A stretch of 64,000 nt of DNA from a bacterium (GTDB lineage: Bacteria; Planctomycetota; Planctomycetia; Planctomycetales; Planctomycetaceae): assembly GCA_016124895.1 (NCBI GenBank), contig WGMU01000001.1, positions 1 through 64,000 of the forward strand, written 5' to 3'. The translations under genes and the position numbers were made by a program. Shown here one piece after another: positions 5,927 through 43,521 of the stretch; position 1 is the first letter of the stretch; each line of letters starts with the position of its first letter. The notes beneath the pieces are model-generated. The model saw only the letters and a list, made by a program, of their open reading frames with translations. It was not told where the DNA came from and searched no databases.

Positions 5927-5999
5927 AAATCACGTCGAGCCTGCCTGTCACGCCTGGAAGCAATCGCAGGCGGGCTCTCAGCAGAAAGGATGCTATCTG

Positions 6000-6329
6000 A
6001 TGCTGGTTCTTACTCGGAAGAAAGGTCAGGCCCTGCGCATCGGCGGGGCTGTCGTCAGGATCCTCGTAACACGCGGCGGGTTCGTCCGCCTGGGCATCGA
6101 CGCTCCGGCGGACGTGCCGATTGTCTGCGAGGAAGTCGATCAGTCTGGAACTGCCGATGGTTCCACCGGGCAGCAGGTCGAGCTGCGTTGCGGGCTGTCT
6201 GCTCGACTTGCGCAGGCAGGCAAGGCCGACGCCGACGCTGCGGACCGATTCCGGCCCGTGCGTCGACTTCAACGAAGAAATCCCGACGCTGGAGCGGATG
6301 CTCGGTTGAAGCCGGGATCCTGCTGCTGA
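6000..6329 (+). CDS. csrA: CsrA-like RNA-binding regulator encoded in element A
   Basis: The first ~50 residues match CsrA/RsmA closely: 'MLVLTRKKGQALRIGG', 'VRILVTRGGFVRLGIDAP', 'ADVPIVCEEV'. CsrA dimers bind GGA-containing leader RNAs and control translation. Two things are odd. The Arg of the 'VHREEI' motif (Arg-44 in E. coli), important for RNA contact, reads Cys here ('VCEEV'). Also the protein is 109 residues rather than ~60-70, with an Ala/Arg-rich tail that does not look folded, so an ancestral stop may have been lost. The start has GAAAGGA at ideal spacing. The gene stands just before the integrase and may control island or host mRNAs. Confidence 0.8.
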   Translation: MLVLTRKKGQALRIGGAVVRILVTRGGFVRLGIDAPADVPIVCEEVDQSGTADGSTGQQVELRCGLSARLAQAGKADADAADRFRPVRRLQRRNPDAGADARLKPGSCC

Positions 6330-6442
6330 CTTCTCTGACCGCGGCGGTAGACTCCGCCGAAACAACCTTTGCTGCGTCGCGGTGTCCGGGGGACTCGAAA
6401 CCTCCGGCCCGCGGCGTGGCGTTTTCGAGAAGGGTTGGCCCG

Positions 6443-8170
6443 ATGGCTCATCTGTACCGGAACACGGTCCACCGTTACGTGGACGCGGACGGCAAACGCT
6501 GCCGCAAGGATTCGCCCGGCGCTCGCAAGACCGTCGAGAAGTCGAAGGCCTGGTATGGCCGCTACCGCGACGCCGACGGCATCGAACACCGCGTCAAGCT
6601 GGCGACGGACAAGACGATCGCTCGGCAGATGCTCCACGAACTGGAGCGGAAGTCACTGCAGCAATCGGCAGGGCTGGTCGATCCGTTTGAGGCCTGGCAC
6701 ATTGCCCCACTGACGGAACACGTCGACGACTTCATCGGTACGCTGCGTGATGCTGGCCGGAAGCCGGACTACTGCCAGTTGATCGAAACTCGCGTGCGAC
6801 GGATCGTCGACGGCTGCAAGTTCCGGTTTATCCCGGACATTTCCGCGAGCCGTGTTCAGCGGGAACTCGGCAAACTGAAACGCGACGGGCTCGGTCAGAA
6901 GACCGTCAACCACTACCTGACCGCCGTTAAACAGTTTGCCGGATGGCTGGTCGCTGACCGACGCACGGGCGACAACCGGCTGGCTCATCTGAAGGCCGGC
7001 AACGAGAAAAAAGACATCCGCCGCGTCCGTCGCGAGCTGACGACTGAGGAAATCCGGCATCTGCTGGAGACGGCTCGACGCGAACGCCCGATTCGTCACC
7101 TGACGGGCTGGGAGCGGTTCACTCTGTACTCTGTCGCGATCGGGACCGGCTTCCGCGCGAGCGAACTGGCAAGCCTGACGCCTGCGCACTTCGATCTGAA
7201 CGGCGCGGACATCGGCGTTCCAACCGTGCGGATTGATGCCGCTGACGAGAAGGCTGGACGCGGTGACCTGATTCCGCTGCCGGCAGAACTGGTCCTGATG
7301 CTGCAACCGTGGTTTGCCGAGTTCACGAAGACGGATCGGCTGTGGCCCGGCGAATGGGCGGCGAAGCACGAAGGCAGCAAGCTGATCGAATACGACTTGC
7401 GCAAGGCGCGGGCAGCGTGGATTGAGGCTGCCGACTCGGATGATGAACGCGAGACGCGGGAGCGGTCGGACTTTCTGCGGTACTCGACGGAAGACGGAAC
7501 CGCCGATTTCCACGCACTGCGGCACACGTACCTGTCGCGGCTGGGACGCTCGGGCGCATCGGCAAAGGCGATGCAGAAGCTGGCCCGACATACGACCGTC
7601 GAACTGACCATCGGCCGCTACACGCACGCGAACCTCTACGACCTGGCGGCAGCCGTTGAAGGATTGCCTCCGCTGCTGAGCGCTCCGGAGTCAGACAGGC
7701 CGGAAGCGGATTCCGCAGCGCTGCGGGCAACCGGCACGACTGGCGCCGCTGAGTGGCCAGCCGTTCGACCTGACGCCGTGGTATCGTCCGATCAGAACTC
7801 ACACGTTCACTCAGTGCCGATCACTGAACACCGTGAGACCCCGGCCGATGTGGTTGGGCGCATGGTTGGACAAAAGGTTGGACAACCGGCTGATTTCGAC
7901 CGACCACGGCTGAGAGTGATTGAAGCGCCGGACGCTGACGAGCCGACTTCAGACAGTGTCGACAGCGCAAGACAAAACCCGTTGCCGGGCAACGGGTTTG
8001 AGTCTGTCAGCGAGTCATTGAGAGTCGCTGAGAATGGAAAGCGGGAGTGGATGGGAATCGAACTAGTGCGAATTCACCGGGGAAATCAGCACTTTTTGAA
8101 ACATGCGGTGCAGAATGCGGTGCAGTCGCTGCGCCGATCAGTGTTGACAACGCCGATCTGGACTGGCTGA
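6443..8170 (+). CDS. Tyrosine recombinase (integrase A) with att site inside its 3' end
   Basis: A 575-residue integrase. Residues about 1-200 form the arm/core-binding part. The catalytic domain shows Arg-237 in 'GTGFRASELASL', 'HALRHTYLSRLG' (His-356, Arg-359, His-360) and the nucleophile Tyr-393 in 'IGRYTHA', so all key residues are present. The tail after ~410 is long and low in complexity. ATG 6443 has AGAAGGG upstream; an open extension to 5990 overlaps the CsrA-like gene and is unlikely. The 24-bp selC copy (8040-8063) lies within the coding sequence, so the last ~35 codons come from whatever adjoins the attachment site, here the left end of element B. Confidence 0.9.
   Translation: MAHLYRNTVHRYVDADGKRCRKDSPGARKTVEKSKAWYGRYRDADGIEHRVKLATDKTIARQMLHELERKSLQQSAGLVDPFEAWHIAPLTEHVDDFIGTLRDAGRKPDYCQLIETRVRRIVDGCKFRFIPDISASRVQRELGKLKRDGLGQKTVNHYLTAVKQFAGWLVADRRTGDNRLAHLKAGNEKKDIRRVRRELTTEEIRHLLETARRERPIRHLTGWERFTLYSVAIGTGFRASELASLTPAHFDLNGADIGVPTVRIDAADEKAGRGDLIPLPAELVLMLQPWFAEFTKTDRLWPGEWAAKHEGSKLIEYDLRKARAAWIEAADSDDERETRERSDFLRYSTEDGTADFHALRHTYLSRLGRSGASAKAMQKLARHTTVELTIGRYTHANLYDLAAAVEGLPPLLSAPESDRPEADSAALRATGTTGAAEWPAVRPDAVVSSDQNSHVHSVPITEHRETPADVVGRMVGQKVGQPADFDRPRLRVIEAPDADEPTSDSVDSARQNPLPGNGFESVSESLRVAENGKREWMGIELVRIHRGNQHFLKHAVQNAVQSLRRSVLTTPIWTG
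7974..8000 (-). terminator. Factor-independent terminator facing away from the att copy, originally downstream of selC
   Basis: A 12-bp perfect stem (AAACCCGTTGCC / GGCAACGGGTTT, single central base) is read on the minus strand as a stem followed by TTTTGTCTT. It lies about 40 bases downstream of the selC-derived 24-mer in tRNA orientation. It therefore looks like the transcription terminator that served selC when element A alone occupied the site. It is embedded in the coding sequence of integrase A. Confidence 0.6.
8040..8063. repeat. att copy: 24-bp direct repeat of the selC 3' end
   Basis: Identical to 19213-19236. It begins agcgggagtgga and corresponds to the T-loop, T-stem and acceptor 3' strand of tRNA-Sec on the complementary strand. 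It marks the junction between elements A and B. Confidence 0.85.
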
Positions 8171-8256
8171 CGGCCGTCTGGCCGACGCTGCCCGGTGACG
8201 TTCGCGAGTCGATTCTGGCATTGGCTCACGCTGCTGGAGACTGTTTCTCAAGTTGA
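8090..8256 (+). pseudogene. Integrase-tail remnant just right of the att copy
   Basis: A short frame reads 'CGAECGAVAAPISVDNADLD' then 'VWPTLPGDVRESILALAHAAG', which I recognise as the tail that follows many planctomycete integrases. The 22-mer at 8105-8126 is identical to 19058-19079 inside integrase B, where it encodes 'AVQNAVQ'. The stretch is therefore the 3' end of an earlier integrase gene left behind at the site. The DNA 8196-8219 recurs exactly at 11874-11897. Confidence 0.5.
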
Positions 8257-10636: not shown

Positions 10637-11017
10637 TCAATCGCTGTCGTCGGCTGCGTCGAGGACTTCGTCGTTTGATGGATCGTCCTTGCGGTTGAAA
10701 GCGTCCGCGAGATAGACGCGAAGTTCGTCACAGTACGCGATGACCACCAGTCGCAGTCCGCCGCTCTTGCCGCTGCCTGGCAGGCCCCAGCGGACTTTCA
10801 GAATCTTGCCGCCCTTTGGCGTCGCACCGACGGGACTGATCGACTTGCCCTGCCGCGAGTCGCAGCCGTTCTCTGCCGAAAAGTAGGCGCAGAGAAACTC
10901 TTTGAGTGAGCGTTTCTGACGTTCGTACTGCTCTGCCGAAAGCTGCTCGCGCACTGCCTGCAGGACATCAGACTTCGCGTTCGCGTGCCACTTCCCGTCT
11001 TCCGGCGAGTAGCGCAT
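10637..11017 (-). CDS. RelE/HigB-like toxin partner of a Panacea antitoxin
   Basis: A 126-residue protein. The C-terminal half 'VRWGLPGSGKSGGLRLVVIAYCDELRVYLADAFNRKDD' has the strand pattern of RelE/HigB-type ribonuclease toxins, including 'G.GKSGG.R.v' and the late 'vyl...f.K.d'. The N-terminal half is a helical extension ('AVREQLSAEQYERQKRSLKEFL'). Its start overlaps the antitoxin stop (TAATG), so it is the second gene of a minus-strand operon. Pairing of such toxins with the Panacea (DUF4065) domain is documented, so I read this as a PanAT pair. The catalytic residues are not certain. Confidence 0.68.
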   Translation of the reverse strand: MRYSPEDGKWHANAKSDVLQAVREQLSAEQYERQKRSLKEFLCAYFSAENGCDSRQGKSISPVGATPKGGKILKVRWGLPGSGKSGGLRLVVIAYCDELRVYLADAFNRKDDPSNDEVLDAADDSD

Positions 11018-11598
11018 TACCAGTCGACTCCGTCCGCCGCGTCAGCAGCAGCGAGAACAGCAGCGTCGAGATTGTGCGGCTCGTGGAGCCACGGATCGTC
11101 TTCCATAATCTGCTGCATCGCGATCAGCAGATCGATCGGCTGAGCGGGATTGCCGGCCCGCAGACCATTCGCGTAGGCGAGCTGCCAGCCGGGGTTGTCG
11201 TGCGAGAAGTCTGACGCCTTGCTGGAGCTGAGATTGGCGAAGTGAGCTCCGACCTGTTCCACAAGCTCATGACGCGGCTTGTCGAGGAAGTCTGGCCGCG
11301 GCAGAGTCTTCTGAAGTTCCAGCGGCTTCGACCCGTCCCATTCGTCGAGTTGCTTCGCCAGGCCGTTTGCTTCCAGTGGCTTGAAGACCCGCTGTGGATA
11401 CTTCGCAACGACGGGGCCGAAATCGAGAGCCACGAAAGTGTTCCGCGTGAGTGTCTCGCCAAAGTCGCGGAGGCAGGCCAGGTCGAGATAGAAGAGCGCC
11501 TTGTTGAGTGTGACCGCGTTCATCCGCCTGTCCGGCGCAGCGTCCAGCAGAGCGACCGCCGCTTCGACAACGCGTTGCTGCTTTTCGTTTTTGAACAT
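11017..11598 (-). CDS. Panacea-domain (DUF4065/SocA-like) antitoxin
   Basis: A 193-residue protein. The core 'MNAVTLNKALFYLDLACLRDFG', 'FVALDFGPVVAKYPQRVF' and 'DNPGWQLAYANGLRAGNPAQPI' is the DUF4065/Panacea pattern (K-L.K.Lff.d, fgPv, n.ga) that neutralises many unrelated toxins. It is the first gene of the operon, with a strong Shine-Dalgarno (gggaggtgg) 8 bases before the ATG; an extension to 11664 lies before that signal. The toxin gene overlaps its stop. Opposite orientation to the flanking modules marks it as a separately acquired cassette. Confidence 0.82.
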   Translation of the reverse strand: MFKNEKQQRVVEAAVALLDAAPDRRMNAVTLNKALFYLDLACLRDFGETLTRNTFVALDFGPVVAKYPQRVFKPLEANGLAKQLDEWDGSKPLELQKTLPRPDFLDKPRHELVEQVGAHFANLSSSKASDFSHDNPGWQLAYANGLRAGNPAQPIDLLIAMQQIMEDDPWLHEPHNLDAAVLAAADAADGVDW

Positions 11599-12114
11599 GG
11601 TCCACCTCCCGGATCCTGCTTTTCCGATCGGCTGAATCCTACTTCCGCCTTGTGCAGAAATCACGAGAAACCTGCCCGTGCGGGTTCTACGGTGAACCTC
11701 TGGCCGGAACCATCACTGCCACGTTCGAGCGGCGACAGACGGAGAGCCCTGCTGCCCATGCTGTCGGCGCTGACCGCAGAAACTCGATTCGCCAGAAGCT
11801 GGCCCTTGGCTCGAATGATCGGGCAGTGAGCCGATCCGGGCATGCTGACGACCGTCTGGGCGACTCTTTCGGCTGACGTTCGCGAGTCGATTCTGGCGTC
11901 GGCTCGGGATGCTGTAGGTGGCTGCTGACGAGCGTGTCGACACGTCGGTCGGGCTGCTGGCCAATCGAAGGGGGGGGAGGCCCCAGGCGGGGGCGGGGAT
12001 GCAGTACGTGTAGGTTCCCGTGCGACTATATTTCGTCGGACTCTCAATAGCATGTATAGTGGTTCGGATATCTGACTTTCGCGAAGTCTTCTACCTGAGT
12101 TGTCGGGTTCCGAA
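11599..12114. other. Non-coding zone with integrase-tail remnant and G-rich tract
   Basis: No intact gene is seen. At 11851-11930 the plus strand reads 'LTTVWATLSADVRESILASARDAVGGC', a decayed copy of the integrase tail at 8176-8250; 24 bases are identical (11874-11897 and 8196-8219). A G-rich tract with four or more G-runs spans 11967-11998. Both support an old junction between cargo blocks. Confidence 0.55.
11874..11897 (+). repeat. 24-bp direct repeat of 8196-8219 (integrase-tail fragment)
   Basis: Starts tgacgttcgcgagtc. It is identical over 24 bases to the remnant beside the left att copy, with weaker similarity on both sides. Confidence 0.7.
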
Positions 12115-12906
12115 ATGGACGGGCCAAACTTTGAGGCAAAGCCGCTCGCCTGTGTGACTGCGGAGCCGAAGGCGAAGCTGATCGATTTCCTTCAGGAGTT
12201 CTCTGCGTCAGGCGACGACGTGTTACAGGGACGACTGTCGGGATACCGGTCTTTCAATACGCTCTATCTGACGGTGCAGAATCAGATTGGCGTGAGCGTT
12301 CAGATCCCGGCGAATGGTTACGGCGAAGGCGTGGAGTTCGTCATTCCGCGAGAGTGCGTGGCTGCTGTGAAGTTCGCGACCAAACACAAACGCCAGTCGA
12401 CCGTGACCGTCTATGAGGATCACGTCATTCTGGAGTGGATCAATCGGCGGATGCTTTCCGCGGCCGACTCTCGGTTTCTGGCCTGGGCAGATGAGGTGGT
12501 CGCCGGAGATGTTTACGGCATGACCATCACCTCGCACGTCGCAGAGGAAGAGCGACTGCAAGCACTCGACGCATCGTTGCGAGAACGTGTCCGCCAGCGT
12601 GGCGCGTGGTTACGTCAGTTCATCACGACGCGGGTTATGCCAGAGACACCATGCCCATACTGCGACTCACCGATTGGGGACGATTGGCAGGCTGACCATA
12701 TCGAGCCGGTCAGCAACGGCGGCCTGTCGATGCTCAGCAACATGGTTGCGGTCTGCTACGCCTGCAATCAGGGGAAGGGAAGTCGGTCTCTCGCTCAGTT
12801 CATCGTTGCCAGAGGGTTCGACTTCGACGTTGTCATCGATCGGTTGCGTCAACTCAACAAGCGGGTCGACGACATCGATCCAGATCCGCAGCGAACGCTG
12901 TTCTGA
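12115..12906 (+). CDS. HNH endonuclease with unfamiliar N-terminal domain
   Basis: A 263-residue protein. The C-terminal HNH/zinc unit is clear: CPYC (about residues 179-182), 'DDWQADHIEPVSNGG' with Asp-His at about 194-195, 'LSNMVAVCYACNQGKG' with CxxC at 214-217. This beta-beta-alpha-metal nuclease type occurs in restriction and phage systems. Residues 1-165 are a beta-rich domain I do not recognise ('YRSFNTLYLTVQNQ', 'GVEFVIPRECVAAVKFA', 'TVTVYEDHVILEWIN'), perhaps the target-sensing part. ATG 12115 is likely; a TTG at 12100 is in frame. It stands alone without a visible methyltransferase. Confidence 0.78.
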   Translation: MDGPNFEAKPLACVTAEPKAKLIDFLQEFSASGDDVLQGRLSGYRSFNTLYLTVQNQIGVSVQIPANGYGEGVEFVIPRECVAAVKFATKHKRQSTVTVYEDHVILEWINRRMLSAADSRFLAWADEVVAGDVYGMTITSHVAEEERLQALDASLRERVRQRGAWLRQFITTRVMPETPCPYCDSPIGDDWQADHIEPVSNGGLSMLSNMVAVCYACNQGKGSRSLAQFIVARGFDFDVVIDRLRQLNKRVDDIDPDPQRTLF

Positions 12907-16453: not shown

Positions 16454-16637
16454 GAATATGGGCGAGGAAGTTTTCTGGGAGATGGAACGACGTCTGGCTG
16501 GCTTCTCACCGACGCTCGGCAATGAGTTCTGGCAGAGTTTTCTGTCTGATCTACTGTTGGACGACGAACTGACGGAAGCTGTGCAGTCGCTTCTGTTAGC
16601 GAGAACGCGGCACTCTGATTCGGAGGGTCGTGCCTGA
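16437..16637 (+). CDS. Small acidic protein preceding the RepA-like helicase
   Basis: A 66-residue protein, 'MLSTVENMGEEVFWEMERRL' then 'EFWQSFLSDLLLDDELTEAV', acidic and amphipathic. ATG 16437 follows GAGGACGGA. Its stop overlaps the start of the helicase gene (TGATG), so translation is coupled. It could be a helicase accessory or loader subunit, by position only. Confidence 0.55.
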   Translation: MLSTVENMGEEVFWEMERRLAGFSPTLGNEFWQSFLSDLLLDDELTEAVQSLLLARTRHSDSEGRA

Positions 16638-17788
16638 TGCGAAATCTCATTTCAGAGCTTGCAAAACACACCGAGATTGAAAGGCCTGAACCGGAAGCTG
16701 TGGTTACATTGCCTGACGGCGGCCACTCAGGATCAATGTCGGGCGAACGAAGTTGTCGGGCAGTGCTGCAGCGATTTGCGAACGTGCCGGCGGAACTGCT
16801 GCGGTGGCTCTGGCCGGGCCGGGTTCCGCTGGGAATGCTGACCGTGCTGTCGGGGAATCCTGGCGGCGGAAAAACATTCGTTGTGGCCGATCTGGTCGCC
16901 CGCATCACAACGGGGCGAGAATTTCCGGACGGGCCAAATGGCAACGGCCCCTGCGACGTGCTCTTCATGAACCTCGAAGACCATGTGCGGGTGACACAAA
17001 AGCCGCGATTGGTCGCTGCGGGTGCCGATGTCGATCGCGTCGTCAGGGTCGAGTGCCTCGAAGTCACTGCACCGGATGGGGCTGTCAGCAATCTCAGCTT
17101 TCACGCTGGCACTGCGGCGGAATCGATTCGTTCAGCGGCGCAGCAACTTGAGAACCTCAGACTCGTCGTGATCGATCCGCTGGCCGCGTTGTTGGCGCAA
17201 TGTCGATCGAACGATGCCGGAGACGTTCGCGAGGCACTGGCTCCGCTTGTGGCCGTCGCTGAAGAACTCGGGATCGCGATCGTGCTGGTCCATCACAACC
17301 GGAAGGGCTCGGGCACACACGCCAGCGAGCGGATGAGCGGCAGTCTGCAGATCGGCGCGACCGTCCGCATGGTCTGGGAATTCTTCCGTGACGATGACGA
17401 CGACGAACGGCGGCTGTTTCTGCCGGGCAAGAATTCCAACGCCCGTGACTGCGGCGGTCTGGCGTTCCGTGTGGTCGATTCTGATGTGCCACTGAGCGAT
17501 GCCGGAGACTTTGTCGGACGCGTTGAGTGGGAGTCAGGAACCGTCGCCATGTCCGCTGATGAAGCTGCGGATCGTCAACGCGATGCCGAGGGCGGGGACT
17601 CGTTTCCGGTTGAGTGGCTTCGAGACTTCATCGGAACCGCGACCGTCGCCGCGACAGAAGCCAGGGCCGAAGCCAGAAAGCAGGGAATCAGCGAGAAGCA
17701 ACTCCGCAATGCACGGAAGGCTCTGAAGATCAAGCCGGAGAAGTCGAGCTTTGCAGGCGGCTGGAGCTGGAGCCTACCGACCGACTGA
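16637..17788 (+). CDS. RepA-type hexameric replicative helicase (AAA_25, RecA fold)
   Basis: A 383-residue ATPase. Walker A 'LSGNPGGGKTF' lies at about residues 71-81, the strand 'DVLFMNLED' follows, Walker B 'LVVIDPLAALL' is at about 176-186 and 'VLVHHNRKG' (sensor-like) after it, then 'ASERMSGSLQIGATVRMVW', the order found in plasmid RSF1010 RepA-like helicases of islands and plasmids. The C-terminus ends in a small winged-helix-like unit ('QGISEKQLRNARKALKIKP') that may bind DNA. It probably unwinds the excised element at its origin. The gene is intact, terminal in its operon, and followed by a structured intergenic region and the integrase. Confidence 0.85.
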   Translation: MRNLISELAKHTEIERPEPEAVVTLPDGGHSGSMSGERSCRAVLQRFANVPAELLRWLWPGRVPLGMLTVLSGNPGGGKTFVVADLVARITTGREFPDGPNGNGPCDVLFMNLEDHVRVTQKPRLVAAGADVDRVVRVECLEVTAPDGAVSNLSFHAGTAAESIRSAAQQLENLRLVVIDPLAALLAQCRSNDAGDVREALAPLVAVAEELGIAIVLVHHNRKGSGTHASERMSGSLQIGATVRMVWEFFRDDDDDERRLFLPGKNSNARDCGGLAFRVVDSDVPLSDAGDFVGRVEWESGTVAMSADEAADRQRDAEGGDSFPVEWLRDFIGTATVAATEARAEARKQGISEKQLRNARKALKIKPEKSSFAGGWSWSLPTD

Positions 17789-17950: not shown

Positions 17951-19273
17951 ATGCCCTCACTTATCAAAGAGCCGAACGGGCGAAAGACGATTCAGGTGAA
18001 CGAGCTGTCGGAACCCTTCAACAGACCGAAGGTCCGGCTTGGGAAGTGTTCGCTCCGAATTGCCGAAAAGGCGAAGGGATTCGTCGAGGAACTCGTGACC
18101 TGCAGCCAGAAGGGGTTGCAGCGCAGTCCTGAGCTGAAGCTGTGGCTCGACAGCCTGAGCGATGAACTGCACGACCGTCTGGCGATGCTGGGGTTGCTTG
18201 AACAACGGGCGAAGTCGGCGCTGGCGGGATTTCTCAACCGCTATCTCGGTTCTCGTTCTGATGTGAAGCCTGAGACGCTGCGTGCGTGGCGACAGGTTGC
18301 CGACCGACTGACGGCGACATTCGGGTCTGACTGCTCGCTTGGCGACGTCTCAGCAGAAATGGCGGCAGAGTGGCGGCAGTCACTGGTGAATGAGGAACTG
18401 GCCGACGCGACCGTCCGGAAATACACGGGCTACGCGAAGCATTTCTTCGCGGTCGCCGTTCGCCGGAAGCTGCTGTCAGAGAATCCGTTCGCGGAACTGA
18501 TTTCTGGTTCGGTTGGTAATGACGAACGCCAGACGGAAGTGACACGGGAAGAAACAAAGCGGCTGATCGACGCGTGCCCCGACGCGGAACTACGGCTGAT
18601 CGTGGCATTGAGCCGCTACGGTGGTCTGCGTTGCCCCAGCGAGCACCGCCTGCTGCGCTGGTCTGACATCGATTGGGCAAACGACCTGATGACGGTTCGC
18701 AGTCCGAAGACTCAGAAGCAGGGCAAGCAGAGCCGGCTGGTGCCGGTCTTCGATGAACTGCGGCCCCACCTGCTCGACGCGGCAGAGTTGAATGACACTG
18801 GCTCAGAGTTCGTGCTCAGGAAGTACCGCAGCGAAAACGGAGCGTACCTGCGAAAGCGGCTGGAGAAGATTCGAGAGCGAGCCGGGCTGCGAGCGTGGCC
18901 ACGAATCACGCACAACCTGCGAGCATCCAGGCAGACAGAACTGGCTCGTGAGAACCCAATGCACATCGTCTGCGCGATTATGGGCAACACGCCGAAAGTC
19001 GCTCACCGCCACTACATCCAGGTGTCGCAGGCCGACATTCTGAAGGCTGCCGGCAAGGCGGTGCAGAATGCGGTGCAGTACGCGCCAGAACCGGGCAGAT
19101 TGGTGCCGCAACCGGCCTCAGCCGAGACAAGGGCAGAACAGGCACAACTCTCGACCGCACAGCCTGTTACTGCACGGTGCGAGAGTCTGCGTCAGAGCGG
19201 TCAAAACCGCTCAGCGGGAGTGGATGGGAATCGAACCCACCAAACCCCTTTTCAGGGGTTTCACCGGGTTTGA
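17951..19273 (+). CDS. Tyrosine recombinase (integrase B) whose C-terminus is encoded antisense to selC
   Basis: A 440-residue integrase. The core-binding part spans about residues 75-185. The catalytic domain has Arg-226 in 'YGGLRCPSEHRLLRW', 'THNLRASRQTEL' (variant of H-x-x-R-H) and the nucleophile Tyr-355 in 'HRHYIQVSQ'. The second His of the canonical box is replaced, as is common in this planctomycete group. The last ~20 codons cross the att core and run into the tRNA-Sec gene, stopping at 19271-19273, so part of the C-terminus exists only in the integrated state. It is the integrase of element B. Confidence 0.9.
   Translation: MPSLIKEPNGRKTIQVNELSEPFNRPKVRLGKCSLRIAEKAKGFVEELVTCSQKGLQRSPELKLWLDSLSDELHDRLAMLGLLEQRAKSALAGFLNRYLGSRSDVKPETLRAWRQVADRLTATFGSDCSLGDVSAEMAAEWRQSLVNEELADATVRKYTGYAKHFFAVAVRRKLLSENPFAELISGSVGNDERQTEVTREETKRLIDACPDAELRLIVALSRYGGLRCPSEHRLLRWSDIDWANDLMTVRSPKTQKQGKQSRLVPVFDELRPHLLDAAELNDTGSEFVLRKYRSENGAYLRKRLEKIRERAGLRAWPRITHNLRASRQTELARENPMHIVCAIMGNTPKVAHRHYIQVSQADILKAAGKAVQNAVQYAPEPGRLVPQPASAETRAEQAQLSTAQPVTARCESLRQSGQNRSAGVDGNRTHQTPFQGFHRV
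19213..19236. repeat. att copy overlapping the selC 3' end
   Basis: The 24 bases are identical to 8040-8063 and include the tRNA 3' acceptor strand and T-arm. This is the tRNA-side junction of element B. Confidence 0.85.
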
Positions 19274-19308
19274 AGCCCGGGGCGGTCACCAGAGCCGCGT
19301 ACACTCCC
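19215..19308 (-). tRNA. selC: Selenocysteine tRNA (anticodon UCA)
   Basis: Read on the minus strand: acceptor GGGAGTG / CACTCCC, anticodon stem-loop ccggg-CTTCAAA-cccgg with UCA at 19271-19273, a long variable arm (aaacccc tgaa aggggttt region) and T-arm with GTTCGATTC. The 94-nt length, long variable arm and UCA anticodon identify tRNA-Sec. The 3' terminal half is reconstituted by element B. A small hairpin (GAGCGGT/ACCGCTC, 19196-19213) lies just downstream in tRNA orientation and may act as a new terminator. CCA is not encoded. Confidence 0.92.
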
Positions 19309-20492: not shown

Positions 20493-22724
20493 CTATCGCG
20501 TGCGTTTCAGCTCGAACTTCTTTCCTGCCAGAGCAGCTTTGGCGAACTCGCCCCAGAACGGCGTCGGCGTGTATTTCCAGTCAGAGATCATCACGGGCGA
20601 CGCTTTCGGGTGCAGGCACCAGCCGGTCCAGTTGAGTCGATACTTCTGGATAAAGCCCAGCATGTCAGGGACCCATGTGTAGGGATCCTCCTGGTCTTCC
20701 GCCGGAATGAAATCCATCTTGTGGATGTCGGCGCCTACCTCGCCCAGAAAGATCGGATGCTTCGCCGCAGTCGGCAGGACCTTTTCTTCCCAGCCGGTGT
20801 GCCAGTGATAGGTGTGCCAGGAATACATGATCCCGTTGCCGCTGCGGTCATCGAGCGCGTAGCCCTGCACAATCCCGCTCAGGTCGTTGCACCAGAAGAC
20901 TCCGCCGGCAATCACAATGTTTTTCGCTCCGGTCGAACGCACCGCGTCCACCAGTCCCTGCATACCGATCGACTCGAAGCCCTGATTCGCCTTCTTCTCG
21001 GCCTCGGTCAGAAACGCCGATTCGTCAACGCCCTTTTCCGGACCGACGTGTCCGCCGTTCTTCCACACATCCCATGAAATGCCGTGTGGCTCGTTAAACA
21101 CGTCAAACAGCACAGCAGGATTGTCTTTGTAGACCGTCGCGAAGTCCTTCCAGAAGTCTGCGTGCTCCTGCTTCGGAGCCCGGAAGCGGTGCAGGTCGAT
21201 GACGATGTACGCTCCGCGGTTGGCTGCCAGCGTGATGACCTGATCGATGATCTCCCGATATTCGCGGCCATCGTCTTTCTGATAATCGCTGTGCCCGTAC
21301 CAGAATGAATCCTTGATCGGGACGCGCACGCAGTTCGCCTTCCAGTCGTCGATCGCGACCACAACCGACTTGATGACCTGTCGATCCGCCGGCAGGGTTT
21401 CGAGCCCGCCGGCATTCACTCCCTGCAGCCAGACCTCTCGCCCCCGACTGTCGTGCAGCCGGTTACCGACAACGTGCAGTTCCAGTGGCCAGCGGGCTTT
21501 GTCAGGTTCTTCCGGCGGAACGTAACGCGCCGCCGCTTCTTCCGCGCGTAGCTTTGCGGCAGCGAGCAGCGGTTCCGACGATGTCGGCCGCAGTTCGAAG
21601 TCGTCGAGATCCAGGGCGCCGGCGGTCACCTGAAACAGACTCGGCATCAGCACAAGTGTCAGTGCATCATCAGGTACAAGGAACGCGGTTCGCTTTTCGA
21701 TCCAGCCGTTTGTGTCTTTCTGCGTGTACGGTGGCGATGGCTTGCTGCTCAGCTTCTTTCCATCAATGCCCTGAAACTCCAGCATCAGTCGCGCATCGAA
21801 CCACGGCGATGCTCCCTTGCGCAGACCGCTGACCCGCTGCTTCCATGTCAGTTCGAGTGCCGACACGCTGTCCGGGAGATCCAGCGTCCGGTACTCCATG
21901 ATGAGTTTCCCTGGCGCAGTCGACTTAAGCCGCAGGAAGTGATTGCCGCCTTCGAGTTCCCACGAGCCACCTTCTTTGACACGCCCCCAGTCGTCCGGCC
22001 AGCCATCGCGATTGGCGTCGGTCTCGAAACCGCCATTCGTAATCAGTGAGCCCGTCTTCGCCAGAATGTCGGCCGACTTTGCTCGACGTTTCTCCGCTGC
22101 AGCTTCGTACTTCGCCCAGCGCTCCGCTGCCGCTTCGTCAACGACGCGGCGAATCGGAGCCGGATCGACAGTCCGGATCGCAACGTCATCCAGGTCGAAC
22201 GTCCCAGCCGTTACCTGAAACGGGCTCGGCATAAACCTGAGCGTCTGTGCGCCATCGGGCACCAGAAACCGTGTCTGCTTCCCGACCCAGCCATCCGTGT
22301 CTTTCCGAGTGGCCGGAGCACCAGGCGTTGGGGCGACCTTTTTCCGGTCGGCGTCGAGAAACTCCAGCAGGATGCGTGCATCAAACCACGACTGCCTGCC
22401 GACCTTCAGCCCGGAGATACGCTGCTTCCAGGACAACTCGACGGCCTCGACTCCTTCCGGAATCCGCAGCTCCTGATAGAGCATCACCAGCTTGCCGGGC
22501 TCAACGCTGCGCAGCCGCAGAAAGTGATTTCCGTCTTCCGCTTCCCAGGACCCGCCGTCGGCGACCTTTCCCCAGCCATCCGGCCAGCGATCTCCATCGC
22601 GATCGACTTCGAAACCGCCATTCGGAGCAACCTCGGTTTGAGCAACAGCCGGCCGGGCGATGAGCAGCAGAAAAAGAACGGCTGGCCAGGCAACCCGGCG
22701 GCTGAGCGATGTCAGACGAAACAT
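20493..22724 (-). CDS. Secreted GH5-type glycoside hydrolase with two N-terminal carbohydrate-binding-like modules
   Basis: A 743-residue protein with a signal peptide (cleavage near 'AVAQ-T'). Two homologous beta-rich modules (about residues 33-185 and 226-380), each beginning 'NGGFE.D...DGWPD.WG', resemble CBM4/9/22-like domains. The catalytic TIM barrel (about 415-740) shows the acid/base Glu in 'VFNEPHG' (about 541) and the nucleophile Glu in 'IFLGEVG' (about 660), plus '[12 protein letters not shown]'. It hydrolyses beta-1,4- or related glucans or mannans; the exact substrate cannot be read. ATG 22724 starts the signal peptide; an ATG at 22751 is also in frame. It probably works with neighbouring esterases. 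Confidence 0.87.
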
Positions 22725-34104: not shown

Positions 34105-34115
34105 CTTCAATTGAG

Positions 34116-34200
34116 CGGAGAGGGAGGGATTCGAACCCTCGGTACCTTGCGGTACACTGGTTTTCGAGACCAGCACAATCGGCCACTCTGTCACCTCTCC
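34116..34200 (-). tRNA. tRNA-Ser (anticodon CGA)
   Basis: 85 nt on the minus strand. The acceptor GGAGAGG pairs with CCTCTCC; anticodon stem CTGGT/ACCAG has loop CTCGAAA (anticodon CGA); the variable arm TACCGCAAGGTA is long as in class II tRNAs; T-arm GGTTCGAATCC. CCA is not encoded. An integrase gene starts 90 bases from its 5' end. Confidence 0.93.
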
Positions 34201-34290
34201 AAGCATGTTTTTACAGGCTATTGCATTATCCTGCAATCCCGCGAAAAATAGGCAGCACACCCGAAACCAAACCCGTTTCGAGGATCTGTG

Positions 34291-35442
34291 ATGGCTACTC
34301 TCCGCAAAAAGCCTGCAAAACCGTACAAGGATTTTCCTCTGTTCCCCCATGCCTGCGGCCAATGGGCGAAGAAAATCAATGGCAGGATGCGTTACTTCGG
34401 GGTGTGGGCGGACCCCGAAGCAGCCCTCAAGGAGTATCTCAGGGAACGGGATTTTCTTCAAGCGGGCTTGGAGCCGCCACCGGCCGATGGCGACGTCGTC
34501 CTGCTGAAGGATTTGTGCAACGCATTCCTCACCTCGAAGAAGCAGAGGCTCGACAGTGGGGAACTCGGTCGTGGCACGTTTACTGACTACAAAAGGTCCT
34601 GCCAGCTCGCGCTCGATACGTTTGGCCGGCTCCGACGGGCCGAATCCATCTCACCGGCTGACTTCGTCAGACTCAGGGGCGTCATCACCGACAAGTACGG
34701 TCCTGTTCGTACCGGCAAGGAGATCACTCAGATCCGCATGCTGTTCCGCTGGGGTGAGCAGCAGGAACTCATTGGTCGGCCCCGGTTCGGCGGCGAGTTC
34801 GTCAAGCCGTCCAAAGATGTCATGCGGCGACACCGGCAGAGCAGTCTGGCTCGCATGTTTGAGGCAGACGAAATTCGCGCGATGCTCGATGACGCTTCCT
34901 GCCAGCTGAAGGCTTGGCTGCTGTTGGGAATCAACTGTGCCTTCATCCAGAAGGACCTGGCTGACCTGCCACGCTCAGCAGTCTCTCTCGAAACAGGCTT
35001 CGTTGACTTTCCCCGACAGAAGATCGCCGTGGAACGGCGCATCCCGCTCTGGCCTGAATCGATCGCAGCTCTGCAGGACTCAATAGCAGCCCGGCGCGAA
35101 CCCGCAAATGAAACCGATGCCGACGCATTCTTTCTGACAGCACAGGGGCATCGAGTCCTGAGCATGCGAGAGAACGGAAACCGCACCGACGCCGTCCACG
35201 CAGCGATGGACCTGTTGCAGCAGCGGCTTGGCATCAAGCAGGCACGGCGCAGCTACGGAGCTCTACGCCACACGTTCCGAACGATTGCCGATGAAACCTG
35301 TGACTTCCCGGCCATCCTGCGGATCATGGGGTATTCCGATAACACGATCTCGAACACCTATCGGGAACGTATCAGCGACGATCGGCTTCGTACTGTCACC
35401 GACCATGTCCGCAACTGGCTGTATCGTGACCGCACGTCCTGA
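34291..35442 (+). CDS. Tyrosine-recombinase-family protein lacking the first catalytic Arg
   Basis: A 383-residue protein. It has an N-terminal 'FPLFPHACGQWAKKINGR', a core-binding part ('LKDLCNAFLTSKK ... GRGTFTDYKRSCQLALDTFG') and a catalytic-like domain with 'YGALRHTFRTIAD' and a Tyr in 'NTISNTYRERI'. The position of the first catalytic Arg reads 'GINCAFIQKDLADLP', so the Arg is missing, a property of a planctomycete-rich integrase subgroup. Whether it catalyses recombination is unclear. ATG 34291 follows GAGGA. It is near the 5' end of tRNA-Ser, not the 3' end where integration usually occurs. Confidence 0.8.
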   Translation: MATLRKKPAKPYKDFPLFPHACGQWAKKINGRMRYFGVWADPEAALKEYLRERDFLQAGLEPPPADGDVVLLKDLCNAFLTSKKQRLDSGELGRGTFTDYKRSCQLALDTFGRLRRAESISPADFVRLRGVITDKYGPVRTGKEITQIRMLFRWGEQQELIGRPRFGGEFVKPSKDVMRRHRQSSLARMFEADEIRAMLDDASCQLKAWLLLGINCAFIQKDLADLPRSAVSLETGFVDFPRQKIAVERRIPLWPESIAALQDSIAARREPANETDADAFFLTAQGHRVLSMRENGNRTDAVHAAMDLLQQRLGIKQARRSYGALRHTFRTIADETCDFPAILRIMGYSDNTISNTYRERISDDRLRTVTDHVRNWLYRDRTS

Positions 35443-36453: not shown

Positions 36454-37753
36454 ATGGCAAGCATCGGAAAAGAAGCTGGCGGCACGAAGCGGATTCTGTT
36501 TTACGCTCCCGACGGCAAACGCGAGACGATCCGAATCGGGAAGGCGACGCAACGGCAGGCGGAAGCCGTCTGTCTGCGAATCGAGCGGCTGGTCACGGCA
36601 AAGATCACGAAGCACGGCACGGACGATGAGACGGCTTGCTGGGTGGCTGAGATCGACGACAAGCTCCACGACAAGCTGGCACGGGCCGGGCTGGTCGAAC
36701 CAAGAGAGGCAGCATCCCTGACGCTGGGAGACTGGCTCGACACCTACATCGGCGGTCGGAGTGACGTCCGCGAACGCACGACGATCAACTACCGGCAGGC
36801 AGCGCGAAACCTGACCGAGTATTTCGGCCGCGACCGACGACTGGACAGCATCACGCCCGGCGACGCCGATCAGTGGCGAGCCTGGATGTTGGAACGCCTG
36901 GGAGAGAACACCGTCCGCCGGCACTGCGGTCGGGCGAAGCAGTTCTTCCGGGCGGCAGTCCGTCACAAGCGACTGAAGGAAAACCCGTTCGCCGATATGA
37001 AGGGCTGCGTTGTCGCACCGAGCGATCCGTCGCGGCAGTTCTTCCTGAGTGAAGCAGACTCGCTGAAGATTCTCGACGAATGCCCAACGCTCGAATGGAA
37101 GCTGATCTTCGCCCTGGCTCGCTGGCAGGCTCTGCGAACGCCGTCTGAGCATCTGCGGTTGCGCTGGTGTGACCTCGACCTCGAAAACCGCACGATGGTC
37201 ATTCACCAGCCAAAGATGGAAACGCGGGGCAAGCCGACACGGACGATGCGAATCTTTGAACCTGTCCTGAGTCTGCTGACCGAACTGCGGGACATCGTCC
37301 AGCCGGGATTCGACTGTCCGCTGTCGGCTCCAGTCCTGGGGGCAGGCAAAGGCGACGCCGTCAACTGGCGTCAGATGTTCCAGAAGATCGTCAAACGCGC
37401 TGGAGTGGAACCGTGGCCGAAACTGTTTCAGTCACTGCGAGCGACACGGGAAACGGAGCTGGCCGCTGTGCTGCCGTTGCACGTCGTGGTGCGGCAACAC
37501 TCCGAACGTCGCGCTCCGGCATTACCTGATGACGACCGACGATCACTTCGCTCAGGCATCATCGCTCGACGTGAGCCCGGTCAGTGCCACCGTTAAACCG
37601 GCACGAAATCCGGCACGCCACACGTCGGAATTAGGCTCCACTGGCGGAAGCGCAAAGAAAGAACCCCTCAAGAGTCCAGCGGATTCCGAGGGGTTCCAAC
37701 TTGTTCCGATTGGAGAATGCCCAGGAGAGGACTCGAACCTCCACGGGGAGTAA
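36454..37753 (+). pseudogene. Tyrosine recombinase (integrase) with single-base frameshift, 3' end antisense to tRNA-Leu
   Basis: The first frame (36454 to about 37488) has the core-binding domain and catalytic 'LRTPSEHLRLRWCDLD' (Arg) and 'LFQSLRATRETELA'. At about 37487-37489 ('cgtggtgcgg') one extra base shifts the frame. Removing one G gives '...VVCGNTPNVALRHYLMTTDDHFAQ', restoring the Tyr motif and continuing in the +1 frame to a stop at 37753. The restored C-terminus '...ECPGEDSNLHGE' lies antisense to tRNA-Leu, as integrase B does at selC. It is either a pseudogene or a sequencing error. Confidence 0.8.
37652..37696 (-). terminator. Terminator of tRNA-Leu
   Basis: Read on the minus strand, GAACCCCTC and GAGGGGTTC (37688-37696 and 37661-37669) form a 9-bp stem followed by TTTCTTTGC. 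It lies about 20 bases beyond the tRNA 3' end, inside the 3' part of the frameshifted integrase. Confidence 0.7.
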
Positions 37754-37804
37754 TACCCCACTAGGACCTGAACCTAGCGCGTCTGCCAATTCCGCCACCT
37801 GGGC
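37718..37804 (-). tRNA. tRNA-Leu (anticodon CAG)
   Basis: 87 nt on the minus strand. GCCCAGG pairs with CCTGGGC; anticodon stem CTAGG/CCTAG with loop TTCAGGT (anticodon CAG); long variable arm; T-arm GGTTCGAGTCC. CCA is not encoded. The integrase at 36454 runs antisense into its 3' half. Confidence 0.93.
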
Positions 37805-41132: not shown

Positions 41133-42515
41133 TCACAGCATCGCTCGACGGCGCACTTCGTCGAAGCTGGATTCTGCGGTGATCGCGCCGTCGCGAAAGA
41201 CCTCGACCAGTTCGTTGGGCTCATGCGGGCGGCAGTCGCTCTCCTGCACTGTGACAAGTTGGCCGGACCGCTTCACAAGAGCCAGCCGGCCACGCTTGGA
41301 TTGCTTTCCGGGGTCTGTAACCGGCTGTTTGAAGACGTCTCGCTTGACACTGTCAACGACGACAGAAGCGCATTTGAAGGCGTATTTCGACGTGTCGCGG
41401 TTCAGCTTCTGCAGCAGGCCGCCGCCCGAGCCGAACGCGACGTTGTCAGTCGACCATCCTGAGGTTTCCGTGGCCGCGAGGATTTCGCTCAGCATCTCTC
41501 GGTCGATTCCGTCGCCCTGAATGACTCGGACTTTCGAGTTCAGCACACGGTAGCCTTTGCTGTTGGTTTCCGTGCCGAACGCCTCGCCCAGCAGTTCGAG
41601 GACTCTGACGACGACGTCGGGCGGATGACCTGAGTCCGGGCGAACGACCAGGACTCCGTCGCGAGCGAGCACCTGGTGCTTCAGTTCGCCTCCCCACAGG
41701 TTCCGGCAGGCGTGGAAGATGTCGTACGAATCGCTGACGACGGCGACTGGCCCGGTCGGAAACTGCGTCAGCATGTTCCGCATGGCGTCAACTTCGTGGT
41801 CGCGGCCCCACGAATTCTGAGTGCTGTGTTCAGCCGCCGGAATGGAATGGCCCGCCATCGGGCAGCCGTAGAAGTCCCGAGCGACGCGAATGCCGGCCAG
41901 CGTGTCCGTGCCGCGAAAACTGATGAGATGCGCTGCGCTCCCGACACCCGCCGTTTCAACAGATGACACGCCACGGTAACCAAAATCGTGCAGCTTGAAA
42001 TCGACGAGTGACGGATCACCGGTCCGTTCCAGAGATTCGAGCAGCGTCCGTTTCATCTCCCGCGACTGAGTGGCTACTGTCGAGCCGTACCACACCTGCA
42101 CGAGCAGCGTCTCGAGATAGTTGGTCAGCCAGAAGCAGTCCGGATCGGTATTCTCGACCGTCATCAGGACATTGCTCACCGGCGCGACAGTCCCCTCAGG
42201 AACAGCCCGGATTACAACCGGCAGCCGCCCGCCGTGCCGCTCGAGAATCAGTTCCCAGCCAGCTCGATGAAACAGCCCTGCATCTCCGAAATGCAGCGCG
42301 AACAGATCAGCCGCTTCGTCAATCCGCTCCTGCGTGACGACCGTCCCGGCCAGGTATTGCTTGAGGTAATACTGCAGCCCGAAAAACACAGTCTCGGGGA
42401 AGACGCCACCGCGCGATTCAAAGTACGAATAGACGTTCTGTGTTCCCGGTGGATACTGCCGGTGATGCGACACCTTGTAGCTGTCAGTCAGCAGGAGGAT
42501 GTTCGAGGAACTCAT
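41133..42515 (-). CDS. nadV: Nicotinamide phosphoribosyltransferase (NAMPT/NadV)
   Basis: A 460-residue enzyme joining nicotinamide and PRPP to NMN in NAD salvage. Family signatures are present: N-terminal 'LLTDSYKVSHHRQYPPGTQN', 'YSYFESRGG', 'FKLHDFGYRGVSS', the active-site His in 'IPAAEHSTQNSWG' (~228) and the Asp in 'VVRPDSGHPPDVV' (~292), with length close to human NAMPT. ATG 42515 begins right at the conserved N-terminus; an upstream extension to 42620 is non-homologous and overlaps the integrase fragment. It is a chromosomal housekeeping gene or a mobile NadV copy. The nearby mobile debris makes both possible. Confidence 0.92.
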   Translation of the reverse strand: MSSSNILLLTDSYKVSHHRQYPPGTQNVYSYFESRGGVFPETVFFGLQYYLKQYLAGTVVTQERIDEAADLFALHFGDAGLFHRAGWELILERHGGRLPVVIRAVPEGTVAPVSNVLMTVENTDPDCFWLTNYLETLLVQVWYGSTVATQSREMKRTLLESLERTGDPSLVDFKLHDFGYRGVSSVETAGVGSAAHLISFRGTDTLAGIRVARDFYGCPMAGHSIPAAEHSTQNSWGRDHEVDAMRNMLTQFPTGPVAVVSDSYDIFHACRNLWGGELKHQVLARDGVLVVRPDSGHPPDVVVRVLELLGEAFGTETNSKGYRVLNSKVRVIQGDGIDREMLSEILAATETSGWSTDNVAFGSGGGLLQKLNRDTSKYAFKCASVVVDSVKRDVFKQPVTDPGKQSKRGRLALVKRSGQLVTVQESDCRPHEPNELVEVFRDGAITAESSFDEVRRRAML

Positions 42516-42618
42516 CGCAATGTGCTCAACGAAGGGAACGGAGCAGAGCGGAACTTTACGGAGTTCGACCTGGCAGCGAGACGGCAAACCTGCGGAAAAA
42601 GTTCTGCGACCGCAGTTC

Positions 42619-43521
42619 ATGTCTGAGCAGGAATGCCGACTGATCTACGGCATTACACCCAGCAATGCCCGGTTGCTCGACCAGATGATGGTCCTGAACG
42701 GCGGCAACAGTCTCGACGATTTCAGCAGGCTACTGGCCTCCACTGCCGAGGGAAATCCGTTTCGTGGCCTGACCGGTCAAGATCGAGTGGTGCTCTACCT
42801 GACCGCCGTCAGTACCGGGTTTCGCGCGTCCGAGCTGGCGAGCCTGACAATCAGTTCCTTCGACCTTGATGCTGAGACGCCGACGATCACGGTTCAGGCC
42901 GCGTACTCGAAGCGCCGCCGAACCGACACGCGGCCGCTGCGGGCAGAGCTCGCCGCGATGTTTCGAGACTACTTTGACGCTCTCGCAGACACTCGCCAGG
43001 GCGATCTGATTCCGATCAGAAGTAAGCGGCTGGTCTGGCCGGGAACGTGGCCGCAGAAAGCGTCCGTGATGGTCAGGACTGACCAGGAAGCCGCTGACGT
43101 GTCCTACCGTGACGAGCATGACCGCGTCCTGGACTTCCACGGCCTGCGGCACACATTCGGAACGAACCTCGCGAAAGCCGGCATCAGTCCGAAAGTCGCC
43201 CAGGAACTAATGCGGCACAGCGACGGGAACCTGACGCTCAACACGTACAGTCACGTCGGTCTGCATGACCTCGCTGGAGCCGTCGAACAACTGCCGCCGG
43301 TTCCGTACGCAGTTCCAGAAGTCGCAACTGGAACAAGCCCCGACGCCGTGTTCGCATTCAAGCCAGAGGAAACAGGCAATTATCAGGAGTTATCAGCAGT
43401 GACGGGCGATCAGATGGCCCGTCGGGCGCCGGATGCAGAAGAGCAACAAGGCGGCTCATCGCATTCGCGCCACGATCCGTTCGTGGCGTCTGGGCGCGAC
43501 CCGCAGCAATCAGAGCCTTGA
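42619..43521 (+). CDS. Truncated tyrosine recombinase (catalytic domain only)
   Basis: A 300-residue protein. From about residue 45 it is an integrase catalytic domain: 'VLYLTAVSTGFRASELASLT' (Arg), 'DFHGLRHTFGTNLAKAG' (His-Arg-His) and the nucleophile Tyr in 'LTLNTYSHVGLHD', all intact. The normal N-terminal arm/core-binding domains are missing; the first ~40 residues ('SEQECRLIYGITPSNARLL') do not look like integrase and may be foreign. The start is divergent from nadV with about 100 bases between. It is probably a fragment that cannot recognise att arms, and part of the mobile debris with the group II introns. Confidence 0.72.
   Translation: MSEQECRLIYGITPSNARLLDQMMVLNGGNSLDDFSRLLASTAEGNPFRGLTGQDRVVLYLTAVSTGFRASELASLTISSFDLDAETPTITVQAAYSKRRRTDTRPLRAELAAMFRDYFDALADTRQGDLIPIRSKRLVWPGTWPQKASVMVRTDQEAADVSYRDEHDRVLDFHGLRHTFGTNLAKAGISPKVAQELMRHSDGNLTLNTYSHVGLHDLAGAVEQLPPVPYAVPEVATGTSPDAVFAFKPEETGNYQELSAVTGDQMARRAPDAEEQQGGSSHSRHDPFVASGRDPQQSEP

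What the first reader, a model, noticed from the sequence alone, without database searches (positions are those of the whole stretch)
17951..19308. Integrase B ends antisense inside selC, so its C-terminus depends on integration
The last ~20 codons of integrase B are read from the opposite strand of tRNA-Sec. Excision would replace them with the sequence at the other att end. Integrase A shows the other case: after its att copy it continues for ~35 codons into element B. The frameshifted integrase at 36454-37753 likewise ends antisense in tRNA-Leu. Three unrelated integrases with this layout suggest a selected arrangement, perhaps an integration-state switch or a link between int and tRNA transcription.
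Basis: partly seen in the sequence, partly recalled or inferred. Interest (0 to 1): 0.6.

Follow-up and report, generated by a model that had tools for sequence, protein, structure and literature searches.

The report
Integrase gene split by its own insertion
A large family of mobile elements in Planctomycetota (and related temperate phages) carries its DNA attachment site inside its own integrase gene, so when the element inserts into a tRNA gene the integrase loses a conserved C-terminal domain and ends instead in a stretch read backwards from the tRNA; this makes the enzyme physically different in the free and inserted states.

Summary
IntB (17951-19273) ends 60 nt antisense inside selC, and IntA and IntC have the stated layout. 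B and C are relatives; A is another clade.

The antisense tail itself is not what is selected: it varies in sequence, length and frame between homologues. What is conserved is that the int frame stays open through attP (70 of 74 homologues; 25 expected). The reason is that attP lies inside int. Element-specific tandem arm-type sites occur both in the int coding tail and just inside the other att end (31 of 32 elements). If the ends are joined as in the circle, the ORF runs through the core and second arm site into a conserved two-helix C-terminal domain ('LxxLIxxWPxLSxxxRxxI'). Using the helices alone, leave-one-out, this is in phase in 24 of 26 elements (P = 5e-10). It also holds in distant relatives not used to build the profile (7 in phase, 0 out). 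Unsplit fusions exist in viral contigs, two beside a portal or terminase gene.

Integration therefore replaces a ~60-aa conserved C-terminus with a variable tRNA-antisense tail. The anatomy is strong. That this switches Int activity is inference. A review calls self-splitting integrases exclusively archaeal, so this bacterial version looks new.

The parts
17951..19273 (+). intB as it stands in the integrated element: arm-binding, core-binding and catalytic domains, arm-coded tail, antisense-tRNA ending (short form, 440 aa)
   Evidence: ORF; PF00589 and PF13102; phrog_1 integrase
19058..19079 (+). arm-type site (tandem GCGGTGCAG, 12-nt period) inside the int coding tail, read AVQNAVQ
   Evidence: perfect copy at 8105-8126, no other in the window; binding not tested
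19213..19236 (+). att core, tRNA-proximal copy (3' end of selC, antisense)
   Evidence: 24-nt identity with 8040-8063
19214..19308 (-). tRNA-Sec (selC), attachment gene
   Evidence: ARAGORN
19214..19273 (+). antisense-tRNA end of intB, 19 codons and stop, present only in the integrated form
8040..8063 (+). att core, distal copy; junction between elements A and B
8105..8126 (+). arm-type site on the distal side, read GAECGAV in the intB frame
8064..8256 (+). detached 3' end of intB (in frame only after excision); two-helix domain at 8155-8238 (DLDWLTAVWPTLPGDVRESILALAHAAG)
   Evidence: circular ORF 492 aa; leave-one-out profile E=6e-10, in phase; no start codon of its own
5990..8170 (+). intA (start uncertain), reads through the A/B junction and ends out of phase in element B
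7850..7873 (+). candidate arm site of intA, read VVGRMVGQ
   Evidence: perfect 24-nt copy at L051:17277 beside the left end of element A
36454..37753 (+). intC, frameshifted relative of intB, ends antisense in tRNA-Leu; its distal end was not found in the window
37598..37617 (+). candidate arm site of intC (CCGGCACG AAAT CCGGCACG)
   Evidence: same 12-nt period and place in the gene as the others; no distal copy found
37718..37804 (-). tRNA-Leu(CAG), attachment gene of element C
   Evidence: ARAGORN

Best explanation
SHOWN by sequence: the attachment site attP (arm site, core, arm site) of this integrase family lies inside the int gene, between the catalytic domain and a conserved ~30-residue two-helix C-terminal domain. 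In the free (circular or phage) form int is one ORF of about 490-520 codons ending in that domain. Recombination between the ~20-24 nt core and the 3' end of a tRNA gene cuts the ORF at the core: the catalytic part stays next to the tRNA and now ends at the first in-frame stop in or just past the antisense tRNA, while the C-terminal domain is left without a start codon at the far end of the element. The int tail is therefore constrained as DNA (arm site, often a tRNA terminator hairpin on the other strand, core) and kept open as a reading frame, while its peptide drifts. INFERRED: the long form (from the incoming circle) and the short form (from the integrated element) are both made and differ in activity or stability, so the gene reports its own integration state. 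Most likely the C-terminal domain favours assembly of the integration complex and its loss poises or disables Int in the integrated state.
For: Frame kept open through attP in 70/74 (25 expected). Arm sites on both sides of the core, matching within and differing between elements, 31/32. Circular ORF reaches the conserved domain; helical domain in phase in 24 of 26, leave-one-out, P=5e-10, across all three core frames; 7 of 7 detected in phase in other classes. Unsplit genes in viral contigs, with arm-core-arm inside the ORF, two of them near portal or terminase genes. Natural pair L182 (free) and L189 (integrated): 82% identical up to the core, then different. Domain start-less and never in one ORF with int in integrated loci. 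Same design in the distant IntA clade, one case.
Against: No transcript, protein or activity data. Six of 32 elements show no detectable domain and two are out of phase. The domain is modestly conserved: over all, mostly saturated, pairs pN/pS is 0.77 against 1.07 in control frames. The second att copy was found in only 32 of 74 loci; for many others the contig or the 20-kb stretch ended first.
Confidence: 0.85

Rival explanations
1. Packing only: attP overlaps int because compact elements reuse DNA; reading past the core is passive, and neither the antisense tail nor the circular tail matters to Int.
For: Tail peptides drift and some elements have lost the domain or its phase.
Against: Passive reading does not keep 70/74 frames open, nor place a conserved domain in phase in 24 of 26 elements.
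Confidence: 0.08
2. The antisense-tRNA peptide itself is the selected part, a tag or tail that acts in the integrated state.
For: The overlap is nearly universal, and one frame (GxEP) is commoner, 47 of 69.
Against: All three frames are used, even at one tRNA; overlap lengths run from 19 to over 200 nt; tail pN/pS is mostly 0.3-1.5.
Confidence: 0.04
3. RNA-level switch: in the integrated form, convergent tRNA transcription (or the new 3' end) silences or destabilises int mRNA, and excision frees it, as with lambda sib.
For: int always points into the tRNA; terminator-like hairpins on the tRNA strand lie inside the int tail in 42/70 loci (11.6 expected).
Against: A terminator there would limit antisense RNA; it does not explain the in-phase protein domain. 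It could act in addition.
Confidence: 0.15
4. The domain is a separate small gene, such as a directionality factor, that merely sits next to attP.
For: It survives at the far end of integrated elements and is found in 100 of 170 genomes of the family.
Against: ATG between core and domain in 4 of 25, start with a Shine-Dalgarno-like site in 1 of 25; phase locked to int; fused in viral contigs.
Confidence: 0.05

Closest known systems
Integration-dependent immunity of mycobacteriophage BPs and relatives (PMC4557955)
   Same: attP lies inside a coding gene; integration removes a C-terminal part (33 residues in BPs), giving different free and integrated proteins
   Different: There the split gene is the repressor and the lost part carries an ssrA-like degradation tag; here the split gene is the integrase and the lost part is a predicted two-helix domain with varied, not ssrA-like, ends
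Self-splitting ('suicidal') archaeal integrases, SSV1, pTN3 and pT26-2 types (PMC8371274)
   Same: The recombination site lies within the integrase gene and integration splits it
   Different: There the catalytic part is separated from the N-terminal part and the gene is inactivated; the Pfam domain is Phage_integr_3. Here the host is bacterial, the domain is PF00589, and the catalytic part stays whole with only the C-terminal domain detached. The review states that self-disrupting recombinases are found only in archaea
Lambda-type heterobivalent integrases in tRNA genes
   Same: Predicted N-terminal beta-sheet plus helix, core in the tRNA 3' end, paired arm sites; lambda and Tn1549 integrases are the best fold matches
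   Different: In the classical layout (recalled, not tested here) int ends before the core; here the gene runs through both arm sites and the core
Lambda int retroregulation by sib (recalled from general knowledge; no paper read here)
   Same: The 3' context of int changes with integration
   Different: There the change acts on mRNA decay; here the encoded protein changes

Membership tests
Tyrosine recombinase, lambda Int type | Phage_integrase catalytic domain with invariant Arg and Tyr | tested here: met
   PF00589 E=2.3e-11; invariant R and Y columns in 28 homologues
Tyrosine recombinase, lambda Int type | Arm-type sites on both sides of the core | tested here: met
   by sequence in 31/32 elements; binding not tested
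Tyrosine recombinase, lambda Int type | N-terminal arm-binding domain | tested here: inconclusive
   three strands and a helix in the L172 model; no DNA-binding test
Archaeal self-splitting (SSV-type) integrase | attP inside the int gene | tested here: met
Archaeal self-splitting (SSV-type) integrase | Integration separates the catalytic domain from the N-terminal part | tested here: not met
   the catalytic domain stays whole in integrated loci
Archaeal self-splitting (SSV-type) integrase | Phage_integr_3 domain (PF16795) | tested here: not met
   only PF00589 and PF13102 found
BPs-type integration-dependent switch | attP inside the repressor gene | tested here: not met
   attP is inside int
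BPs-type integration-dependent switch | Integration shortens or changes the C-terminus of a regulator of the element | tested here: met
   by sequence, for Int rather than a repressor
BPs-type integration-dependent switch | Lost part carries an ssrA-like degradation tag | tested here: not met
   by inspection of the C-termini
BPs-type integration-dependent switch | The two protein forms differ in activity or stability | not testable with these tools
   needs biochemistry

The most novel reading that the evidence does not exclude
The C-terminal two-helix domain is a built-in directionality factor: long Int (free element) performs attP x attB integration, and short Int with an antisense-tRNA tail performs or permits attL x attR excision, so the act of recombination itself rewrites the enzyme's direction, in bacteria and their phages across a phylum.
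Probability: 0.35. Interest if true: 0.9.

Novelty: new variant of a known kind. Interest (0 to 1): 0.78.

Why it matters
Integrases that cut their own gene are described as exclusively archaeal (PMC8371274). This is a widespread bacterial and phage version that spares the catalytic domain and removes only a conserved C-terminal domain. It turns an open question, how tyrosine integrases know the state of their element, into a simple test of two proteins that differ only in the C-terminus. It also explains the antisense-tRNA C-terminal tails (such as 'GLEPPTS') seen on these integrases, and gives a way to map element ends: find the start-less WPxL domain.

Tried and rejected
1) Conserved tail peptide: rejected, frames and lengths vary. 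2) AVQNPVQ as a protein motif only: rejected, the DNA repeat recurs noncoding at the other end and covaries by element. 3) Contig C20 directly overlapping the start of C154: no shared end sequence; the left end of A on C20 was instead recognised by the arm site. 4) Fused forms in PLSDB plasmids or INPHARED phages: none. 5) Single-protein scans of genome contigs and viral contigs gave 4 and 0 loci; an int alignment gave 59 viral loci; the domain alignment was too variable for a pattern scan. 6) Pfam, NCBIfam and PDB for the domain: no significant match. 7) A permissive terminator scan was weak (57 against 43 expected), so a strict one was used. 9) PHROGs gave nothing for seven ORFs around the fused gene of L184; phage hallmark genes were found near L181 and L187 instead.

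Full report
CHECK. IntB (17951-19273, +) ends 60 nt inside tRNA-Sec (19214-19308, -), 19 codons plus stop. A 24-nt identity block links 8040-8063 and 19213-19236, so element B spans about 8.06-19.24 kb. IntA runs ~35 codons past 8063, in another frame of the core. IntC is frameshifted and ends 36 nt antisense in tRNA-Leu. B and C share 36% identity over 348 aa; A is a distant clade.

HOMOLOGUES. 120 of 170 genomes of the family carry IntB homologues. I fetched 80 stretches. Of 74 integrases with a tRNA on the opposite strand downstream, 70 end inside it or read on beyond it, in tRNAs for Sec, Val, Leu, Ala, Arg, Met, Gln, Glu and Lys. The reading frame stays open from after the catalytic Tyr to the tRNA in 70/74, against 26 and 12 for the other two forward frames and 25 expected by dinucleotide shuffling. 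The tails themselves are unlike one another. The T-loop is read in all three frames (47, 15 and 7), and at tRNA-Val(CAC) all three occur. Between close relatives tail pN/pS is mostly 0.3-1.5, against 0.04-0.3 in the catalytic body.

ATTACHMENT SITE. In 32 loci the second att copy was found. The shared block is usually the tRNA 3' end through the T arm, 14-25 nt; a few blocks are longer and reach into flanking DNA. In 31 of 32, a tandem repeat with a 12-nt period is present both in the int coding tail (about 85-156 nt before the tRNA) and about 40-86 nt inside the distal block. Its sequence differs between elements but matches within an element: GCGGTGCAG, CGGCACAG, GACTCAC, GGCGCGC, GCGCAGCA, GGTGGCCA and others. 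These are arm-type sites by position and symmetry; binding was not tested. In the window they are 19058-19079 and 8105-8126, the only two matches (0.01 expected). The conserved-looking peptide AVQNPVQ is thus the translation of a DNA site.

THE MISSING 3' END. When the two ends are joined as in the circle, the int frame runs through core and distal arm site into a conserved C-terminus, GAESGAV...LxxLIxxWPxLSxxxRxxIxxLA, and stops. The median is 194 nt past the core, against 47.5 nt in the other frames. Leave-one-out profile tests put the domain in phase with int in 26 elements on the full tail. With the helical part alone, which excludes arm-coded residues, 24 are in phase and 2 out, P=5e-10, across all three core frames; 6 have no detectable domain. 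That P treats elements as independent; most pairs are only moderately similar and many target different tRNAs. Loci from other families and classes of the phylum, not used to build the profile, gave 7 in phase and 0 out at E<1e-3. The domain has no conserved start of its own, is not in Pfam or NCBIfam, has no PDB relative by sequence, and in integrated loci never shares an ORF with an integrase.

FREE FORMS. In IMG/VR contigs the unsplit gene exists: L165/L167, L172, L181, L182/L184, L187/L222 and L214 have int, arm site, core region, arm site and C-terminal domain in one ORF, with no tRNA found there (the domain is weak in L214). L181 carries a portal gene and L187 a large terminase gene, so these two are phages. 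L182 (free, 492 aa) and L189 (integrated in tRNA-Ser, 459 aa) are 82% identical up to residue 433, at the core, then part: a natural before-and-after pair.

ELEMENT A. Contig C20 holds a 92% paralogue of IntB followed by 67 nt of tRNA-Sec and then another element's left end. That left end carries a 24-nt perfect copy of an IntA coding repeat (GTGGTTGGGCGCATGGTTGGACAA, window 7850-7873). Joined to IntA it reads in frame into ...LDAVREAVAACDELPEHIRAAVLALLETV..., so a second integrase clade probably has the same design. The selC locus is probably a tandem array X-A-B-selC split over two contigs (inference; the contig ends do not overlap). IntA's tail into B is therefore an accident of the junction.

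tRNA TRANSCRIPTION. Within 110 nt of the tRNA 3' end, on the tRNA strand and inside the int tail, strict terminator-like hairpins occur in 42 of 70 loci, against 11.6 expected and 17 on the int strand. Elements appear to bring a new terminator for the tRNA they displace. An RNA-level effect on int is possible and untested.

STRUCTURE. An AlphaFold2 model of the L172 long Int (mean pLDDT 75) shows a three-strand-plus-helix N-terminus, core-binding and catalytic domains, a low-confidence linker (362-462) and a two-helix C-terminus (458-494, about 72). The best fold matches are Tn1549 and lambda integrases.

MECHANISM. Shown by sequence: attP inside int, and a C-terminal domain exchanged for antisense tRNA codons on integration. 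Inferred: two Int forms with different behaviour. I favour a role of the domain in the integration step or in protein stability; the data do not choose between them.

KNOWN SYSTEMS. BPs-type phages place attP in the repressor gene and lose 33 residues on integration (PMC4557955). SSV-type archaeal integrases split their own gene, a trait a review calls exclusively archaeal (PMC8371274), but there the catalytic part is separated from the N-terminal part. I found no bacterial integrase of this kind in the searched library. Most subscription literature was not searchable, and overlaps of int with attP in single phages may be reported there.

HOST. A homologue contig in a genome of the same family (G048:C520) has the same length and match position as the record L161, titled uncultured Planctomyces sp.; the window is therefore most likely from a member of Planctomycetota (inference).

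Noticed in passing
window 11830-11925: A second, decayed copy of the two-helix C-terminal domain (81% identical to 8152-8239 over 88 nt) inside element B; perhaps the relic of an older element end.
   Followed up: partly
L051:15811-18123 (contig C20 of the same genome): A 92% paralogue of intB next to a 67-nt tRNA-Sec fragment and the left end of what is probably element A: evidence for a tandem array in selC split over contigs.
   Followed up: partly
70 integrated loci, first 110 nt beyond the tRNA 3' end (for example L056, L066, L086, L091): Intrinsic-terminator-like hairpins on the tRNA strand, antisense inside the int coding tail (read as KTPVLQG in int): elements seem to supply a new terminator to the tRNA gene.
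   Followed up: partly
window 10637-11664 (-): A RelE-like ORF (below the Pfam cut-off) next to a SocA/Panacea-domain ORF: a possible toxin-antitoxin pair inside element B.
   Followed up: no
window 16637-17788 (+) and 12100-12906 (+): An AAA_25 ATPase with primase/helicase-like PHROG matches and an HNH endonuclease in element B; no head or tail gene among the B proteins searched.
   Followed up: no
window 34288-35442 (+) with tRNA-Ser 34115-34200 (-): A fourth integrase, starting on the 5' side of tRNA-Ser; no att repeat of that tRNA was found in the window, so the two may be unconnected.
   Followed up: no
window 42499-43521 (+): An integrase ORF of 340 aa whose Phage_integrase match begins at profile position 28; possibly a truncated copy.
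   Followed up: no
window 21928-22039 and 22513-22624: A 112-nt direct repeat (74% identity), 585 nt apart.
   Followed up: no
L061, L120 and L060: Elements in which int and domain are out of phase (L061, L120) or int has a stop just before the tRNA (L060, L061): probably decaying copies.
   Followed up: partly
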